Source of the DNA: Cystobasidiopsis lactophilus
Taxonomy: Eukaryota > Basidiomycota > Agaricostilbomycetes > Agaricostilbales > Chionosphaeraceae
Direction of reading: 5' to 3'
Assembly (NCBI GenBank): GCA_001599975.1
Contig: BCIO01000006.1
Span: forward strand, 1,359,587 to 1,423,586
Length of the DNA stretch: 64,000 nt
Shown: positions 6,428 to 21,109 of the stretch, one piece after another
Position numbering within the stretch: the stretch's first letter is position 1
Layout: each line of letters begins with the position of its first letter
Made by a program: the position numbers and the translations under genes
Notes under the pieces: generated by a model
The model's input: only the letters and a program-made list of their open reading frames with translations
Told to the model about the DNA's origin: nothing
The model's database searches: none

Positions 6428-7887
6428 CTACAATGCCTTCCCGAGAGGGCCCAGGCAAGGTGAGGTGAACAGCTTGCCCGTGAATGCCTTTTGAGCTGAC
6501 ATGGTGCCAATGACCAACCACAACAAGAACACCACCACCGTACCAATGGTGCCAATGTATTTGAAGGCCTGCTCGAGATGGGGCATGAGTTGAACGCGGG
6601 GAGAAGTAACACATCGGCCCTCACCTGCAGCTCGAAATCTTGGCCAATGGCAATGCTCGCCGACACGAACGTGCCGAGAGGGAAGATGAAGGCCCAGAAG
6701 CCCATGTTGAACGGAATGCCATCCTTGAGCGAGAGCTTGAGGATGGCGCTGGTGGCGATGACCAGCCAGAAGATGCCAAAGCCAAAGATGACGAATGACA
6801 GGGCCAGTGTGCTGCCGTACACCGAGAGTGCAAGAACGCGAGCATCTTGCGGGTTGAACAGCTTGCCATTGTCCAAGAAAATCCCAAACTCATCCGACAA
6901 CCGCTGCACCCCCTTGGCGAGCGTCAATAGGGCGAAAGCCCCTTGCCCACAAGGACCGATCGGAAGGAACGATGAGACGATCAATCCGACCGGAGGAAGG
7001 TGGTGCAGTGCCAGACGCTGGATGTATATCGCCATGATGAGGAAGGCGACGGGTAGCCCTATGCCGAGCAGAATGTAGCCCGCAATCTGCGAGCGACTTT
7101 GAGAAAGAACACACTTTCAAGATATCATGACTCACTAGAGTGGTTATTGCTTGCTCTTTGGGCAGCAGATTCGCTAGGACAGCTCCCGCAGCCGAGCTGA
7201 CGACCGGCGATACCACGGGTAGCATCCAGGTGGCGTTCATATCTTGCAAGGACGTCTGGTGGTGATCGAAGAGTGCAAATGCCACTCCCAATGCCACCAC
7301 GACCGACAAGGCGGCATCAACCCAGAACAGCGCCAGGACAAAGTCGCTATACCCTGTTCCCCAGTTCGGCACCCCGACATAGGCGGCCATAGTGACCAAC
7401 GTGCTGAAGCCCATGGAGAAGGTGCCGAGGAAGAATGACTGGGCGTGGCTGAGCATAAGGAAGAAGACCTTGGGCCACCGGGCATAACGCAGGACGCTCA
7501 TGATCAGAAAGAAGGTGAAGAGGACGATGTTTAGGATGAAGATGGCTTCGGAAATAGGTCGAAGGCCAGCAAATTGGCTGGGCAGTGCGTTAGGCCAACA
7601 CGCCAATTGCCACCCGGCAAAGCACTCACAATGGCAATCGGTTCAGCAAAATTCCAGTGATACCGTTGCCCATAATGATCGAGTTCCAGCTCGGAGTGAA
7701 GAGCAATACGCGCCTACACGGAGCATCAAATCTGTACGTCCACTTCTGTCCAATCGCATCCAACGCACTTGGCCCATTTGGAAGTGGGTGGCGCCAAGCC
7801 CAAATCCTTTGCCAACGCTTCGTCCTGCGCTCGCTGTGCATTAGGGACCTCTTCAGCAGTCACAGTGCCATTCCTTCGACTTTGCAT
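6428..7887 (-). CDS. SSU1: SSU1-type sulfite efflux / dicarboxylate transporter (TDT family)
   Basis: A polytopic membrane protein with about ten helices. The first helix has FTPSWNSIIMGNGITGILL, matching the FTPSW..xMGTG signature of fungal Ssu1 sulfite pumps; later helices include WGTGYSDFVLALFWVDAALS and MGFWAFIFPLGTFVSAS. The first intron (55 nt) joins SKWAK to RVLLFTPSW, removing an otherwise open reading frame. Another intron near 7091-7135 joins QAITTL to IAGYILLGIG, and one near 6565-6620 precedes the last helix. The start chosen at 7887 gives MQSRRNGTV; an ATG at 7935 is an alternative. Mae1-type malate permeases are the nearest alternative, but the FTPSW motif favours SSU1. Confidence 0.85.
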
Positions 7888-13712: not shown

Positions 13713-15192
13713 TTAAGGTTGGCTGCTGACCAGCTTCTCTAAGGTGGCGAGCTCTAGTTTTCCGATTTTGCCCTCTAGCTTGCCTTGAAAGACACCCTTG
13801 CCGCCGCCTCTGAGTCTGGTGCCCCATTCGGCCTTCAAGACCTTGCTGGCTTCAGTGACCTTATCTAACCCGCCAAAGAGGACGATAGGACACGTTCCAG
13901 TGGTGTTCTGGCCTGCCAGAACGTAGAGCGCATCCGACGGGCTGCTATCGGCGTTCTTGAGCTTGATTGTGACGGCCAGCAACAGCTCCAGTTCTTCGTC
14001 GGGCCGGACCATCAAGGCGGCCACATTAGAATTTGCTTTGACCTCTTCCACCAATTGGGCAGAGAGGAAGCCCGTCAGCTCTTCTTTGAGCCGCTTTTCT
14101 CGCTTTTGCGACTCCTTCAAGCTGTCGATAGCTAGCTTGGTACGCGAGACCAAATCCTCCGCTCCTCCAAACTCCAACGATATCATTCGGTTCGTTTCTA
14201 GTGCTGTCGAGACGTTCCGTAAGACACGGTTGCCGACAAGGAAGTAGAGCCGGGTGTTGGTGCCTCGAATGCTGGTGGTGTGCGGCAAGATGTGGATCGT
14301 TTGCAGCATGGAGATAGCCGGCAAATGCGAGCCACAGCATGGATTGCGATCGTTCGGAATCGCCGGGTGATGGATAGTGACGTGTCGGACGACGCCGCCC
14401 TTGTAGTCGGCAGGGATCTTGGGTGGCCTCGGGTCGCCTGAATCTTCCAGGGCGACATCTACGCGGACAGGTGCATCATCTCTGATAAGCGAGTTGCACA
14501 TGTCGGCATATTGCTGGATCATTTCTGAGCTCGGTGCCGTGGGAACCTCGACGTATGAAGCCTGAGGATAAGGCTGAAGCGACCACCCGAGCGTTTCGAT
14601 GCCAAAGTGCTCTTCTAGCACTGACGATAAGAGCTGTTAGAAAGGGCTCAGTACTCATTCAGATGACGAAGCGCGATTTTGCTGCTCACATGCTGGCCCG
14701 TGTGTTGCTGCATCAGCTGTGGCGCGCGAAGTGAGCATAACGTTGGGTTTGGCGTACGAAGACGCTTCTTACATCAAGTCTGCGGTCGAAGTCTACCTCG
14801 ACCTTAACGCTGCTCCCTTCCGCTAGCGGCGCATCACAATAGTGGACGGCAGTGATGCCCTGCCGGAGCACTTTTGAGACGGCAACCTTGCTATTGCCCT
14901 CGCCAATGATCGTTCCTTGATCAAAAGGCTGTCCGCCACCCTCCGGAAACAAGCACGAGTCCTCGAGCTGGACCGCCCATTCTTCTTTCGCTGGGGCCGC
15001 TGGCGCTGACTTGGCAGCCTTCTTGGCCTGATTGGTCTTTGGCGCCTCGACTTCAACCACTTTTTCGCACTTGAGGACCTTCGTGTTCAGTTGTCGTTGG
15101 AGAGGATCGCGCTGGCATGCCAAAAGGCCGACAAACTTGATCTCGGGCAGCTCAAAAGGGCACTGAAAATAGTCGGAGGGCGTCTGCAACAT
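13713..15192 (-). CDS. Alanyl-tRNA editing protein AARSD1/AlaX type
   Basis: A free-standing alanyl-tRNA editing domain that removes Ser or Gly mischarged onto tRNA-Ala. Residues GLLACQRDPLQRQLNTKVL open the N-terminal barrel, SCLFPEGGGQPFDQG is the glycine-rich editing loop, and the zinc-binding HxxxH (HTGQH) lies on its own 27-nt exon at 14690-14716. The second metal motif is CCGSH, followed by MLQTIHILPHTTS. The C-terminal region has a coiled helix (ESQKREKRLKEELTG) and a glycine motif RGGGKGVFQGK, as in the DHHA1-like end of AARSD1. The start at 15192 (MLQTPSDYFQ) is the nearest in-frame ATG; an upstream exon is possible. It is convergent with PIK1. Confidence 0.9.
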
Positions 15193-15721
15193 TCTGCCAG
15201 ACTTCAAAAATGGCAGAGGTGGCTTTAGGCGGAGCAATGAGCGCAGAATTGTGACGAGCTGGATCGACGTTTCCAGAAGGGATGTTTTGGGGAGCTTTTG
15301 TCCGAGCTCGAGCGGGAGCCGATCTGGGGCCGGGTGGCAAGTTGGATAGTGCACATGCGGTCAAACATAGCTCTAAGTGGCAGCACAGAGGATTACTCGC
15401 ATCGGCGCCCTTCCGAGAGCCGTCTACTGATGTAGCCCGCCGTGAGCTTCCTTTCTTCAACCGCCGCGTCCTCTCAACAGCCCTTTTCGACGCCCATCTT
15501 GATGACCAAATCAACCAAGAGTTCATGAAGATCAATCAAGGGCTCACTGGAGCTGGTATCATGGAGTCACTCGTCCAATAAACCGAAGGCCGGTCGACAG
15601 TACCGAAAACCGATTCGGCCACGGTTCCAGTGGGGACTTGAGCGTGGGTCAAGTCATAGTTTGTATCGTTTTACTTCTCCACATCGCGGGAGACGGCGAG
15701 AAAAGCGAGAGGATCGCGCGT

Positions 15722-17536
15722 TTATGAAAGGAAGCTTGGGCCAGGCGCCCCTTTATCGAGCGGGTTCCGAATCCGAAGCAGCAGCCAGGCCAGCAGCGTT
15801 GCCGACGAGAACCAAAAGACGAGGGCGTGCGGTCTGGAGGCATAGCTGTGCAAGCCGTCGTTCGGATTGAACTTGTACCTGCGCTTGTTTTTGTCAACCC
15901 GCACATCGGACTCTCAAGATCGGAAAAAACACACCACCCATTCGAACCAATCTCAATAGCCAAAGCCAAAGCTGGCCGGAAGATCCAAGGCACGCCAGCA
16001 ACGTGATACAACAATGGCAAAGTGTAGTAAGCCCAAATGAAGAAGCTGTAGTGCAGACTTCTGGCAAACACAAAGCCCGTGTAGTGCGTCACAAAGAGAA
16101 GAGAGACGATCTGAAACCGCGAGGGCGAGATCTCTTGGGGACCAGAAACCGGCAAAGGGGTGGAAGAGCGGTAGCGCAGCTGATAAATAGCATAGGCGCA
16201 AGTCGAGAGGTGAAGCCCCAAGAGGATCCTAGGGAACCAGGGCCAGTAGAAGAAGGCTTCTGGGACCCATTTCCAGATGTGCATTTTCAATTGAACATGG
16301 GACTTTGATGGGCAGAAGGGGGCAACCCGAGCTCACTTCATTGAACCGGTCCAGCCAAATTTCCTATTGAGCTGGTATGCTCGCGTAATGTAGTGCACTG
16401 GTTTCGATAGCAGGAAAGGCAGTCCAGCCCAAAGTTGCCAGACGACTGCCCATCTGGAAGCGAGCACAGTTTTGCGGATGCCTATGGTGGCGAGGAAGTG
16501 GTAAGCGGCCCCGGGAGCCCAAAGCAAGCCGCTCATTTTGACTGAGGAAGCGATGCTGAAGAAGAGGATGGACAGGGCGGGGGAGGTGCCTTTGAGGAGC
16601 TGGATGACGCCGAGCAAGCTGAAGGCGACTTGGAAGACATCGTTGTGGCAAGAGTTGACATACGTGTTGCGATTCTAACATCTGGCCATGTGAGCGGTGG
16701 ATTCAAAGAGGCATTCAGTCCAGCACCTCACTCGCATCGTCGTCAGGAAGAAAATGCAATCGAGCTCAGGCGTCGGACTTGCAAGCGCATAGACGACATG
16801 GACGATCTGTTAGCACCAAGCACAAACGATTGAGCCAAAAGAAAGAGGCTACTGGAGAGGTGGTACTGGCCTTCATGACCGCCACTTGGACGAAAATGAA
16901 GACGACTTGAGCGCCAAAGTAGTGAGGAGCGTCCATGTTTGGCGGCACGCCAAACACCCTTTCGAAGAAGGAATAGATCAGGACATGACCCCCAGCTTCC
17001 GTCATTTTGAGATGGGAGTTCCGACGGTGCATCAAACCGAGGCGACTCACGATACTGTCCGGCAGGTTGTCAGTTAGAAGCCTCGAAAATGGGTGTGGTC
17101 TCACCATAATAGGTCCAGTGGCTTCACATACGAGTCCGAATTAGCATGGGCGGACATATAGAGCGGATTGGAGGTGCGTACGTCCGTCGATTTTGTAGTC
17201 TGGCCACCCCTGGCTTGAGGTCGCCCGCCCCAGTCGTTCAAATGAGGCAAACTCACAGTCCAGCTCTCCTCCCCACACTTTATGGACTTGCTCTAAATAT
17301 GTCGGGTAGTCAAGCACTGAACGTGCCCCAATATATGAGTCTCAGCGCCACCAATGAAGGCATGCAGTCCATTTACTATGCAGCGGCCCATAGAGCACGA
17401 AATACCAATCCAGCACAAACTCGGCGAGAAGGAGGTAGATGGACCAGTTCCGCCTGTACGCCTGGTAAATGCCCCGAAGTAGCCCAGGAGTCGGCGCCGG
17501 CTCTTCCTCGACCAGGTCTATCTCCTCGAAGCTCAT
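15722..17536 (-). CDS. ALG3: ALG3, dolichyl-P-Man alpha-1,3-mannosyltransferase of the ER lumen
   Basis: ALG3 adds the first lumenal mannose to Man5GlcNAc2-PP-dolichol in N-glycan assembly. The multi-pass protein starts MSFEEIDLVEEEPAPTP at 17536. Conserved pieces include LDYPTYLEQVHKVWGGE, then KIDGPTGPIMYPGGH spread over exons of 18, 17 and 4 nt, then VLIYSFFERVFGVPPNMDAP, SVKMSGLLWAPGAA, and the C-terminal half LLFVTHYTGFVFARSLHYSF. After the last intron the tail carries HALVFWFSSATLLAWLL and a short end with stop at 15722. The GPTGPxxYPGGHxLIYS string is the family hallmark. The exon just upstream of LDYPTY, where most ALG3 proteins have VPYTE, could not be placed with certainty. Confidence 0.93.
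17051..17199 (-). other. ALG3: ALG3 micro-exon cluster (18, 17 and 4 nt exons)
   Basis: Reading the minus strand, exon 17182-17199 (18 nt) is followed by a 60-nt intron, exon 17105-17121 (17 nt), a 50-nt intron, exon 17051-17054 (TATC, 4 nt) and a 55-nt intron. Every intron starts GT and ends AG; branch-like CTAAT and CTAAC are visible in the first two. The joined product reads DYYKIDGPTGPIMYPGGH, which matches the ALG3 signature in length and order, whereas no longer single-exon reading does. Confidence 0.85.
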
Positions 17537-18605
17537 CGTAAGAGAGCTCCAGACTCCTGGTGAGTGGCCGTATGGGAGAAAGAGGCGCGAGAGCACATGA
17601 AACTTGACAGAGTTCTAAGATTGGAAGCATTGGGCGGTGCGAGCTCAACAAGTTCGGCATGGCAGGCAGGAATGGATCGCTGGCCACGTCTACGATCAAG
17701 CGTACATTCCGATTACTGAGCAAGAGCTGGCAAGGGAGTGTAGAGGCAAGGCAAGACAGAAGCGACGCGAATTGGGAGTGAACGTCTTGCCGGCGTCGAC
17801 CAGATCGCGCTCGCACACCTCTAGGCTCTCTTGGTCATCATCTGCATTTGGTATTGCACCACAGAATGCAGTCTGAGAACTTAGAAACGCCAGCAAGAGC
17901 GGCCGGGCAGATTGAGTTCAAGCAAGCGGGCTCAGCAGGACAATTTAGCAGTGGCGCGTGGGCAGGGCATCAAAGGAGCATCCAGGGCGCATCATTCGTA
18001 TCTCAGCAGCACAACATATTGTGCCAAAGGTCATGGACTGAGACCAAGAGCCACAGAGCCCCAAGACGGGATCCGATCCTGTCCCGCACGCTGCCAAGCG
18101 CTGTTTGCCCTCTTGCCCTCGCCCCAGCAACGATCTCCGCCTGCTCAAGGCGCTGTGCACAGTCGACGACCGCCTACGACGAGCGACGAACGCCGGGCTC
18201 GGTCCCTCAGCCTCCTCACGCCCTCATAAATTTGCTGGAGAGGCCAAATCCGCGCGCGCCAAAGACGAAGGCAGCTTGACGCCCGGTTCAAGCGCTGGTT
18301 GCTGCCCGTTGCTGTTGATTCGGAGAGACGCCTAGGCCAGGTAGCGGCGAGGCTTGCCTGAACAGCAACCTAGAACACGTCTGCCTCGAGCCTCCGATCC
18401 TTCTCCTTCCCGTCTGTCGCCCGCGACCTCGCTCGCCTTGACGCCGGCTCTTGACAGGTGCGGCGCTACTTCCTACCCTGGCCTTACTATAGTGCCTAGT
18501 CTAAGAAGTAACAAAGCACAGACAAGCGCTCGACAAGCACACGACCCCATCCTCCCAAGCTCAGACCTACACCTCGATCCGCCCAACTCCAGTGAAACGG
18601 ACAGC
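17537..18605. other. Divergent intergenic region, ALG3 (-) and p24 (+)
   Basis: About 1.07 kb between two starts, containing short overlapping open frames (for example around 17848-18279) that lack recognisable domains or support from splicing. It probably holds both promoters and long 5' UTRs. Both flanking genes act in the early secretory pathway, so a shared promoter is possible but not shown. Confidence 0.5.
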
Positions 18606-19720
18606 ATGCTACGACTCACGAACGCCCACGCCCTCTTCCTCCTCCTCTGCCTCGCATTAAAAGCCAATGCGCTATACTTTTACGTGCGTTTACCCTCACC
18701 TACCTTTTGACAGGCTTTGGACTGATTTCTTCGACATTTTGTGCACACAGCTGTACGTTGGCTGTGATCCTGTATCCATTGGAGGATGTCAAATCCATAG
18801 CACGTGTACAGACAAAGCGGCGAGACCAAATGCTTCCTCGAAGAGTGGGCAGCCCTTCCCTTCTGCCCTTCTCTCTATACCGGCTAATGATGGAGATTAC
18901 GACCCACAGACTTCCGAATCACACCGTTGTGGCAGGTGAGTCCCAGTCTCTTGTTGGAAGCGAACTGCGGGGACAAGGTGCTCAAAGGTGGTGCGCGCTC
19001 GCAGGCCACTACAAAGCCGAAGAGTGGTCAACTGAGCAGAACAAGTATGTGATCAACGACCGAGTCGGCATCTCCATCGTGGTGGAGGAGGTCGACTCGA
19101 AGGAGAAGATCGTCCAGACCCGCGGCTCCGCCCAGGGCAAGTTCACCTTCACCTCGCACGACGCGGGCGACCACTCGATTTGCTTGAGAACAAAGTGGGT
19201 CCCCTCCGCTTGTGTGAGGCACAAAGAGCACGATGAATGGACCGGCGCTACTTCTAAGTCACAGCAATACGGGCGGCTGGCTCAGCCAATCCCAAGTCCG
19301 CTTACACCTCGACATCGCCGTCGGCGAGGCCAAGGTGGACGAGGAAGGGGAGAAGGACCACATCTCCGACTTGGCCGACAAAGTCAAGGAGCTCAATAAG
19401 CGCCTCGTCGACATCCAGCGCGAGCAGCAGTACCAGCGCGAGCGCGAGGCCGAGTTCCGTGTGCTCTCCGACCGCACCAACTCGAGCGCCGTCTGGTGGT
19501 CCATCTTGCAGATCGCCGTCCTCTTTGGCACGTGCACCTGGCAGCTAAGGCATCTCAAAGTGAGCACAAGTCCTTGCTCCTGCACTGTCCCGTTGTGCTA
19601 AGCTGGGCCGACATGTCTCGCAGAAATTCTTTGACAAGGTAGGCCATAGCTCCACCTTCGGCCTTGTTTTGCGGCTCACATATGCTTTGATTTTGTCGCC
19701 CACAGAAAAAGCTCATATGA
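18606..19720 (+). CDS. p24 family cargo receptor, p24-alpha/TMED9 (yeast Erp) type
   Basis: An ER-Golgi COPI/COPII cargo receptor. The start MLRLTNAHALFLLLCLAL is a signal peptide ending at NALYFY. The GOLD domain follows: SGETKCFLEELPNHTVVAG on two small exons, then HYKAEEWSTEQNKYVI, GKFTFTSHDAGDHSICLRT and GGWLSQSQVRLHLDIAVGE. A coiled coil (DKVKELNKRLVDIQREQQYQ), a membrane helix (WWSILQIAVLFGTCTWQL) and the tail LKKFFDKKKLI complete it; FF and the KK near the end are COPII and COPI sorting signals, and KKLI fits the alpha subfamily. Small exons include 26 nt (about 18913-18938) and 15 nt (19624-19638), and a 2-nt exon at 18751-18752 seems needed. Stop TGA 19718-19720. Confidence 0.93.
18751..18752 (+). 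other. Candidate 2-nt micro-exon (CT) in the p24 gene
   Basis: Exon 1 ends in phase 0 at 18683 (NALYFY). The next coding piece, from 18812, needs two extra bases to read LQSGETKCF. The dinucleotide CT at 18751-18752 has CACACAG before it and the near-consensus donor GTACGT after it, giving introns of 67 and 59 nt. The resulting spacing between YF and KCF equals that of human TMED9. The alternative, one 117-nt intron ending CCATAG at 18800, would insert three additional residues. Confidence 0.5.
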
Positions 19721-19926
19721 CCGGCCGAGAAGGGAAGAGGAAGATTGGCTGGGCCTGCTTTTTCCGCTTGCATTGTACTCTGAAAAAAGGAACCACAGCG
19801 CTAGCGCCTTTTTCGCATGTTCTTCCTGACCACTACTGCCCTTGACTTTCATTACCCGAGTGGCGACTTTCGCGCTTTCGCGAGCGACAACAGACTTTGA
19901 GCTCGCCCAGCCAAGTTTTGCTCAGA

Positions 19927-21109
19927 ATGGTGCACTACGACCTCAACGTGCCTTTCCCTGTGGATTTCACCGCGTCTGCGCCTGCTGCTAAGCCGAATAA
20001 GAAGGGCAAAGGCCCAACAGCAACGCCAGCAGCCTCCACTTCGGCAGCCGCCTCGAAACCTCCGCTTTTGACAGATGAGCGCAAAGCGAGCTTGCTGGCC
20101 TGCGTGGAGATGCTCATTCACCGTTGGTTGCTTCGCTCTTCATTCAAATTGAATGCGATTGCAATGATTGGGCCAACAGTGGGCTACTCGGCGTGCGCTT
20201 TCGAGCTCTTCATCCCCCTTAACTCTTTCAACCCGCAATCCGTCAAAAGCTCCCACCCTTGCCCCAACTTTCAGCCGCTTTTCCCAGACTTGGATAGCAG
20301 AACTGCGGGCGACAGCGGCCGCAAGACCATCCTGCAGCTCAGCCGGCTCACTGTAGCCTTGGACGAGAAGTCGATCGGCGGCGGCAAGGGCAATGGCATT
20401 TGTTTTGTCCGTCTTTCTCTTTCGTCCTCCTGTGAAACTTCCAGCTGAGAGTGTGATGCATAATCAGACGACGGCCAACGCCAACTTATTGGCGCAATAC
20501 GATCTGCTGGCTGTCCTACCTCGGGATGCGGCTTCCTTTCAATATGCTTGCACCAACCTCTCTTCGCCAACACCCACTTCCATCGACATCATCACTTTAG
20601 ACTTGGCGACTTCTCCTAAACTACCTTTTCACCTCAAGCGCTCTCTCATCTTGAACGCCATCCAGCAAGGCGTCGTCTTCGAAGTCGTCTACGGTGTGAT
20701 CCTCCGCACCAAGACGACCGACCCTGCCGTTCCACCAGACGCACGACGGAATGTCTTTACCGCTGCCAAAGAGTTGATCCGAATCACCAAGGGCAAGGGC
20801 ATCATCTTTTCGTCGGCGGTCAAGAACTGCATGGAGCTCCGCTCGCCCGAGGACTTGGTCAACTTGGCACGGGGCTGCATGGGCCTGGAGATTGTGCGAG
20901 GGAAGGAGGCACTGGAAGCCAACCCAAGAGCCGTCGTCATGCGGGGCTTCTCGAATCGACAGACCTATCGAGGCGCCATTAAGGGTCCGACTGTCATCAC
21001 CAGCAAGCGGCCGATGCCGGTGGCGATCTCAGACTCGGAGGAAGAAGACGAAGAGATGGACGGGGAGACTGCTGCTGCGTCGTCCTCAAAGAGGGTTCGC
21101 ACTTCATAG
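19927..21109 (+). CDS. RPP1: RNase P/MRP protein subunit RPP1 (p30)
   Basis: The protein starts with MVHYDLNVPFPVDF, the short N-terminal motif of the p30 TIM-barrel-like subunit shared by RNase P (tRNA 5' processing) and RNase MRP (rRNA processing). After the first intron, LGYSACAFELFIPL follows the helix LLACVEMLIH. Later motifs are ANLLAQYDLLAVLPRDA, SIDIITLDLATSPKLPFHLK, GVVFEVVYGVIL and GIIFSSAVKNCMELRSP, all in the order of the family. The tail carries an acidic stretch (SDSEEEDEEMDG) and a basic end KRVRTS, plausible for a nucleolar protein. Introns lie near 20122-20178 and 20400-20460; their exact limits are not certain. Confidence 0.9.

What the first reader, a model, noticed from the sequence alone, without database searches (positions are those of the whole stretch)
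17051..17199. Run of micro-exons (18, 17 and 4 nt) encoding the ALG3 signature
Seen: on the minus strand, GT-AG introns of 57, 60, 50 and 55 nt separate exons of 18, 17 and 4 nt. Joined, they give KIDGPTGPIMYPGGH, the expected ALG3 motif in the right spacing. Established: a motif of this form is nearly invariant in ALG3. Inference: the 4-nt exon TATC must be recognised by the spliceosome between two introns of about 50 nt, which is at the limit for exon definition and suggests strict intron definition in this organism.
Basis: partly seen in the sequence, partly recalled or inferred. Interest (0 to 1): 0.75.

Follow-up and report, generated by a model that had tools for sequence, protein, structure and literature searches.

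The report
Four-letter exon in fungal sugar-transferase gene
A fungal gene related to the N-glycan enzyme ALG3 is cut into exons as small as four letters, and a distant copy elsewhere in the same genome is cut at the same places, so the tiny exons are very likely real, though exons this small are already known.

Summary
On the minus strand, exons of 18, 17 and 4 nt are separated by GT-AG introns of 57, 60, 50 and 55 nt. Under my limits (GT-AG introns of 35-90 nt, at most five, family motif length) this is the only splice chain in the region, and it gives KIDGPTGPIMYPGGH; the best of 1000 shuffles scored 5.6 against 51.9.

The strongest evidence is a second copy on contig C1. It has the same 18-, 17- and 4-nt exons at the same codons and phases, although the introns no longer align and synonymous sites are saturated.

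The gene is not ALG3 proper. The genome's canonical ALG3 is on C3, with one intron in this motif and no micro-exons. The window gene and the C1 copy lie in a deep, separately supported ALG3-like (GT58) clade, mostly of unnamed records.

The window copy has a flaw: its intron 8 has no AG acceptor that keeps the conserved NWKWVP stretch.

Intron definition is the likely mechanism, but it is inferred and usual for fungi. A 1-nt exon is already published in Fusarium. I rate this a new member of a known kind. No RNA evidence was available.

The parts
17377..17536 (-). exon 1 (160 nt) of the ALG3-like gene; start codon inferred
   Evidence: aligns with C1 exon 1
17317..17376 (-). intron 1, 60 nt, GTAAAT..CAG
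   Evidence: weak donor, also weak in C1
17257..17316 (-). exon 2 (60 nt), end of Met codon then LDYPTYLEQVHKVWGGELD and first base of Tyr codon
17200..17256 (-). intron 2, 57 nt
17182..17199 (-). micro-exon 3, 18 nt
   Evidence: same place and phase in C1
17122..17181 (-). intron 3, 60 nt
17105..17121 (-). micro-exon 4, 17 nt
   Evidence: same place and phase in C1
17055..17104 (-). intron 4, 50 nt
17051..17054 (-). micro-exon 5, 4 nt (TATC): Tyr codon plus first base of Pro codon
   Evidence: identical 4-nt exon in C1
16996..17050 (-). intron 5, 55 nt, donor GTGAGT
16871..16995 (-). exon 6 (125 nt), completes YPGGH
16807..16870 (-). intron 6, 64 nt, GC-AG; absent from C1
16732..16806 (-). 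exon 7 (75 nt)
16675..16731 (-). intron 7, 57 nt
16337..16674 (-). exon 8 (338 nt), carries RNxxxNxxxND motif
16277..16336 (-). intron 8, 60 nt, donor GTGAGC; homologous 3' end reads CACAT, not CACAG as in C1
   Evidence: no GT-AG or GC-AG solution keeps NWKWVP
15935..16276 (-). exon 9 (342 nt), if the non-AG acceptor is used
15879..15934 (-). intron 9, 56 nt
15722..15878 (-). exon 10 (157 nt) with stop codon

Best explanation
Window 15722-17536 (minus) is a ten-exon gene for an ALG3-like (GT58, dolichyl-phosphate-mannose-dependent) mannosyltransferase. It is a paralogue of the fungus's true ALG3. Its most conserved stretch, GELDY.KI.GPTGP..YPGGH, is cut by four short introns into exons of 18, 17 and 4 nt. 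Shown here: the chain exists, it is unique under the stated limits, and it is kept at the same codons and phases in a second, strongly diverged copy on contig C1. Inferred: each 50-60 nt intron is recognised across the intron. The two introns around TATC are then removed one after the other, because both splice-site complexes cannot sit on 4 nt at once. Skipping TATC gives a frameshift and an early stop, so inclusion is probably constitutive. The cluster was probably built by introns inserting into, or lost unevenly from, a motif that cannot change.
For: Exact exon chain. Single possible chain under the strict limits, 0 of 1000 shuffles reach it. Same 18/17/4 structure in C1, while all eight homologous intron pairs align no better than shuffles (z -1.4 to 1.6) and synonymous sites are saturated (dS about 2.7, dN 0.31). 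The 22-residue segment with YP is found in 293 of 325 family proteins (the misses include truncated records). Donors of introns 2-5 rank 16-25 of 34 in both copies against 34 introns harvested from CCT and proteasome genes; the donor after TATC ranks 25 of 34 in both. Skipping TATC gives a stop after five more codons. PF05208 hits. Two-clade tree.
Against: No transcript was available. The window copy's motif scores below the family's 5% point (51.9 against 62.9). Its acceptors around the micro-exons are weak (ranks 5, 3, 8 and 1 of 34 for introns 2-5; introns 3 and 5 end in AAG). In C1 a three-intron model without TATC is open and loses only Tyr-Pro (GPTGPLVVTGGH, score 104 against 120). The window copy's intron 8 has no usable AG acceptor, so its full-length product is in doubt.
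Confidence: 0.9

Rival explanations
1. The window copy is a recently disabled paralogue (young pseudogene). The micro-exons are inherited from a working ancestor, but the gene no longer makes a full enzyme because intron 8 lost its AG acceptor.
For: Intron 8 has no GT-AG or GC-AG solution that keeps NWKWVP. Acceptors score lower than in C1 in 7 of 8 shared introns, one of the 7 being the AT site itself. 4 departures at 41 columns conserved in at least 95% of 137 family rows, against 2 in C1 and 0 in C3.
Against: The frame is open over 431 codons if that site is used. Its branch is about as long as that of C1 (0.34 and 0.31). Overall dN is far below dS. An assembly error or use of a non-AG acceptor is not excluded.
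Confidence: 0.35
2. TATC is not an exon; the motif is made by another splice choice or lacks Tyr-Pro.
For: In C1 a three-intron chain without TATC scores 104 against 120.
Against: In the window copy the best three-intron chain scores 77 against 113. The segment with Tyr-Pro is found in 293 of 325 family proteins. Two copies keep the same 4-nt exon with unalignable introns around it.
Confidence: 0.04
3. The window gene is the organism's working ALG3.
For: PF05208 match and the ALG3 motif.
Against: A better match on C3 (440.4 bits; C1 243.3, first 265 residues of the window copy 148.6) has no departure at 41 conserved columns and groups with fungal ALG3s; the window gene groups in the other deep clade with 100/99 support.
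Confidence: 0.04

Closest known systems
1-nt exon of Fusarium CYP621A (PMC12940212, passages read)
   Same: Ultra-small exon inside a near-invariant protein motif; frame breaks without it; short fungal introns on both sides
   Different: 1 nt not 4; one micro-exon not three in a row; has transcript support; orthologues across species rather than two paralogues in one genome
Xlr2 micro-exon of Trichoderma virens (PMC11121469, passages read)
   Same: Micro-exon in a filamentous fungus
   Different: There inclusion differs with glucose; no sign of regulation was testable here
8-nt exon of Phanerochaete chrysosporium CYP5141A1 (mentioned in PMC12940212, passage seen)
   Same: Very small exon in a conserved motif; white-rot fungus (a basidiomycete; recalled)
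   Different: Different gene family; larger exon
Canonical ALG3 (PF05208, GT58; solved chain 9s6r_A)
   Same: Same Pfam family; same TGP..YP.GH motif and ND motif
   Different: Canonical SxRxHSIxxLRLFND; the window gene has TxRxRNxxxNxxxND, and the genome's own ALG3 has no micro-exons

Membership tests
Micro-exon (very short internal coding exon) | Internal exon far below normal size bounded by valid splice sites | tested here: met
   18, 17 and 4 nt, GT-AG on both sides
Micro-exon (very short internal coding exon) | Needed to keep frame and motif | tested here: met
   skipping the 4-nt exon gives an early stop; skipping the 18-nt exon, or the 17- and 4-nt exons together, keeps frame but loses motif residues
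Micro-exon (very short internal coding exon) | Included in mature transcripts | not testable with these tools
   no RNA data held
Micro-exon (very short internal coding exon) | Conserved in a relative | tested here: met
   same structure in paralogue C1; no other species' DNA could be compared
ALG3 / GT58 family (PF05208) | Profile match over the curated cut-off | tested here: met
   148.6 bits for the first 265 residues of the window copy, 243.3 for C1; cut-off 23.6
Canonical ALG3 orthologue | Groups with named ALG3s in a tree | tested here: not met
   other side of a 100/99 branch; C3 groups with fungal ALG3s
Canonical ALG3 orthologue | SxRxHSIxxLRLFND motif | tested here: not met
   window copy reads TMRNRNTYVNSCHND; C3 reads SKRLHSIYLLRLFND
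Canonical ALG3 orthologue | Adds the alpha-1,3-mannose to Man5GlcNAc2-PP-dolichol | not testable with these tools
   needs an assay
Intron definition | Splicing efficiency depends on intron length, not exon length | not testable with these tools
   only consistent: introns 50-60 nt here, genome sample 54-76 nt

The most novel reading that the evidence does not exclude
The window gene and its C1 sister are fungal members of an undescribed ancient ALG3-like clade with its own sugar-transfer role. Their run of three micro-exons acts as a fragile inclusion switch, since missing the 4-nt exon destroys the message, and the window copy additionally uses a GT-AT intron.
Probability: 0.1. Interest if true: 0.65.

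Novelty: new member of a known kind. Interest (0 to 1): 0.38.

Why it matters
Three successive micro-exons, one of 4 nt, have been kept at the same codons in two copies whose introns no longer align and whose synonymous sites are saturated. That makes it a clean natural test of whether fungi splice strictly by intron definition and how introns pile up in a motif that cannot change. Standard annotation would probably miss the exon and call both genes broken (inference). The gene also points to a second deep ALG3-like clade whose enzyme activity appears unassigned: it did not surface in the listings, which are not exhaustive.

Tried and rejected
One search used the wrong motif length, so its profile was empty; it was redone correctly. 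Scans of viral contigs and genome contigs (bacteria and archaea) with the clade alignment found no encoded relative (42 and 102 pattern matches, none confirmed), so no DNA of another species could be compared. U1 snRNA was sought with RF00003 (no match) and with a short 5' pattern (3 hits, none with the usual T and none followed up). I looked for introner-like families among 34 introns; the best pair scored 16 and two more 15, against 14 at most in shuffles, so none was claimed. A gap in a CCT gene was inspected by eye for further micro-exons; it looked like an ordinary small exon, and no genome-wide survey was made. At intron 8 an open AT-AC solution that keeps WKWVP exists (score 113, against 134 for GT-AT); it was not preferred, because the GT-AT boundary is the one homologous to C1. 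Intron gain within the clade rests on protein records only. P0002 and P0004 read straight through the motif. P0001 begins MYCFAD before GQIRGP, as if reading out of the same phase-1 intron, and P0003 begins at MYPAGH. No DNA was seen for any of these. Rejected: chance arrangement and canonical ALG3 identity.

Full report
What was checked. The window is part of an unnamed 22.1-Mb genome in 8 contigs, G000; the window is C6:1359587-1423586.

Is it more than chance? I fixed the flanking exons and listed every chain of GT-AG introns (35-90 nt, at most five) that gives the family's 22-residue motif length. Family members score 39.3 at least, 62.9 at the 5% point and 73.0 at the median, so the window copy is a low-scoring member. 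None of 1000 dinucleotide shuffles reached it; the best was 5.6. In C1, 4 chains fit and 2 are open; the micro-exon chain scores 66.4 and the next 13.2, and the best of 1000 shuffles 3.9. The profile came from 293 of 325 family proteins that matched the segment pattern, 203 of them distinct. The pattern itself requires Tyr-Pro, so it leans towards that feature; the 32 others include truncated records and were left out. With loose limits (introns 30-300 nt, any in-frame length, some GC donors) the chain is still best in the window copy: 113, against 77 for three introns, 61 for two and 33 for one.

The decisive comparison. A family search of the own genome with PF05208 found three loci: C3, the window on C6, and C1. 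The C1 gene is intact (428 aa, ten exons) and has exons of 18, 17 and 4 nt at the same codons and phases, the last again TATC. C1 and the window copy share 264 of 422 aligned residues; dN is 0.31 and dS about 2.7, which is saturated. All eight homologous intron pairs align no better than shuffled sequence (z from -1.4 to 1.6). The exon boundaries have therefore been kept while introns and synonymous sites have diverged. A caveat: in C1, with loose limits, a three-intron model without TATC is open and scores 104 against 120, losing Tyr-Pro.

What gene it is. The C3 gene is the canonical ALG3: 413 aa, 440 bits to PF05208, no departure at 41 columns conserved in at least 95% of 137 family rows (137 of the 325 proteins were used), and the usual SKRLHSIYLLRLFND motif. 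It has one intron in the motif, one base upstream of the place where the paralogues have their intron before Tyr. The window gene and C1 carry a TxRxRNxxxNxxxND motif instead. A looser form of it (R.RN, 4-8 residues, ND) was found in 17 of 325 fetched proteins; 297 have the canonical form and 11 neither. The 325 are the listed best hits of three capped searches, so these shares say nothing about the whole family. A tree of 61 rows was built from all 17, 41 hand-picked others of the remaining 308, and the three genes of this genome. It puts C1, the window copy, 15 of the 17 and one further protein on one side of a branch with 100/99 support, and C3 with fungal ALG3s on the other. Two of the 17 (P0060, P0098) fall on the canonical side, so the motif alone does not define the clade. 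Most members are records without an organism name (sources jgi, lgn, ena; presumably metagenomes). One (P0005) comes from a transcriptome whose id style I recall as the sponge Sycon, and a Sycon ciliatum protein (P0250) is on the canonical side.

How it probably works. The genome's introns are short. From 60 of the 71 matches I took 35 adjacent exon pairs of CCT and proteasome genes; 34 gave an intron, 54-76 nt, median 64, and one gave no solution and was dropped. The choice among candidate sites favoured GTRAGT and C/T before AG. Donors of introns 2-5 are ordinary to good (ranks 16-25 of 34 in both copies), and the donor after TATC is among the better ones in both. Acceptors in the window copy are weaker than in C1 in 7 of 8 shared introns, counting the AT site. 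Short introns with good donors fit recognition across the intron, and sequential removal around a 4-nt exon follows from space limits; both are inference. [quoted passage not shown] Skipping TATC gives a stop after five more codons; skipping the 18-nt exon, or the 17- and 4-nt exons together, keeps frame but loses part of the motif.

A flaw in the window copy. At intron 8 the C1 gene uses the acceptor CACAG, while the homologous place in the window reads CACAT. No single GT-AG or GC-AG intron there keeps the conserved NWKWVP stretch: the 3 GT-AG and 2 GC-AG open solutions all delete it. A GT-AT solution at the homologous boundary scores 134, and an AT-AC solution that keeps WKWVP scores 113. 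The copy also has a GC-AG intron that C1 lacks, and C1 has one intron (in the Pro codon before FQVAF) that the window copy lacks. Whether this is a young pseudogene, a non-AG intron or an assembly error cannot be told without reads. The low dN relative to dS and the similar branch lengths (0.34 and 0.31) suggest that it worked for most of its history.

Against the literature. A 1-nt exon with read support in Fusarium, and a mention of an 8-nt exon in Phanerochaete, are in print (PMC12940212, passages). A functional micro-exon in Trichoderma is in print (PMC11121469, passages). That paper's reference list names work on intron definition in fission yeast, which I have not read. Nine literature searches were made. 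I saw no report of this ALG3-like clade or of micro-exons in ALG3 in their listings, but only listings, and passages of four papers, were read. The finding is very likely real and is tidy, but it is a new member of a known kind.

Noticed in passing
G000 introns of CCT and proteasome genes (L015-L063): The donor consensus in these genes is GTNCGT: C at +4 in 19 of 34 and A in 7 of 34, with G at +5 in 33 of 34, unlike the usual GTRAGT (recalled), although the site choice favoured GTRAGT. The ALG3-family genes mostly have A at +4. U1 snRNA was not found, so a matching change there was not tested.
   Followed up: partly
16277-16336: Intron 8 of the window gene ends in CACAT where the paralogue has CACAG; no AG acceptor keeps the conserved stretch.
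   Followed up: partly
16807-16870 and L014: Two intron differences between the paralogues: a GC-AG intron only in the window copy and one intron only in C1.
   Followed up: no
L014 2947-1094 and clade proteins P0001-P0013: A deep ALG3-like clade separate from canonical ALG3, mostly records with no named host.
   Followed up: partly
13716-15360 minus; 18596-21106 plus; 6893-7642 minus: Neighbouring reading frames match an alanyl-tRNA synthetase (two pieces, one below its cut-off), an emp24/p24 protein, RNase P p30 and a SLAC1-type channel; 5 of the 10 frames tested had no Pfam match.
   Followed up: no
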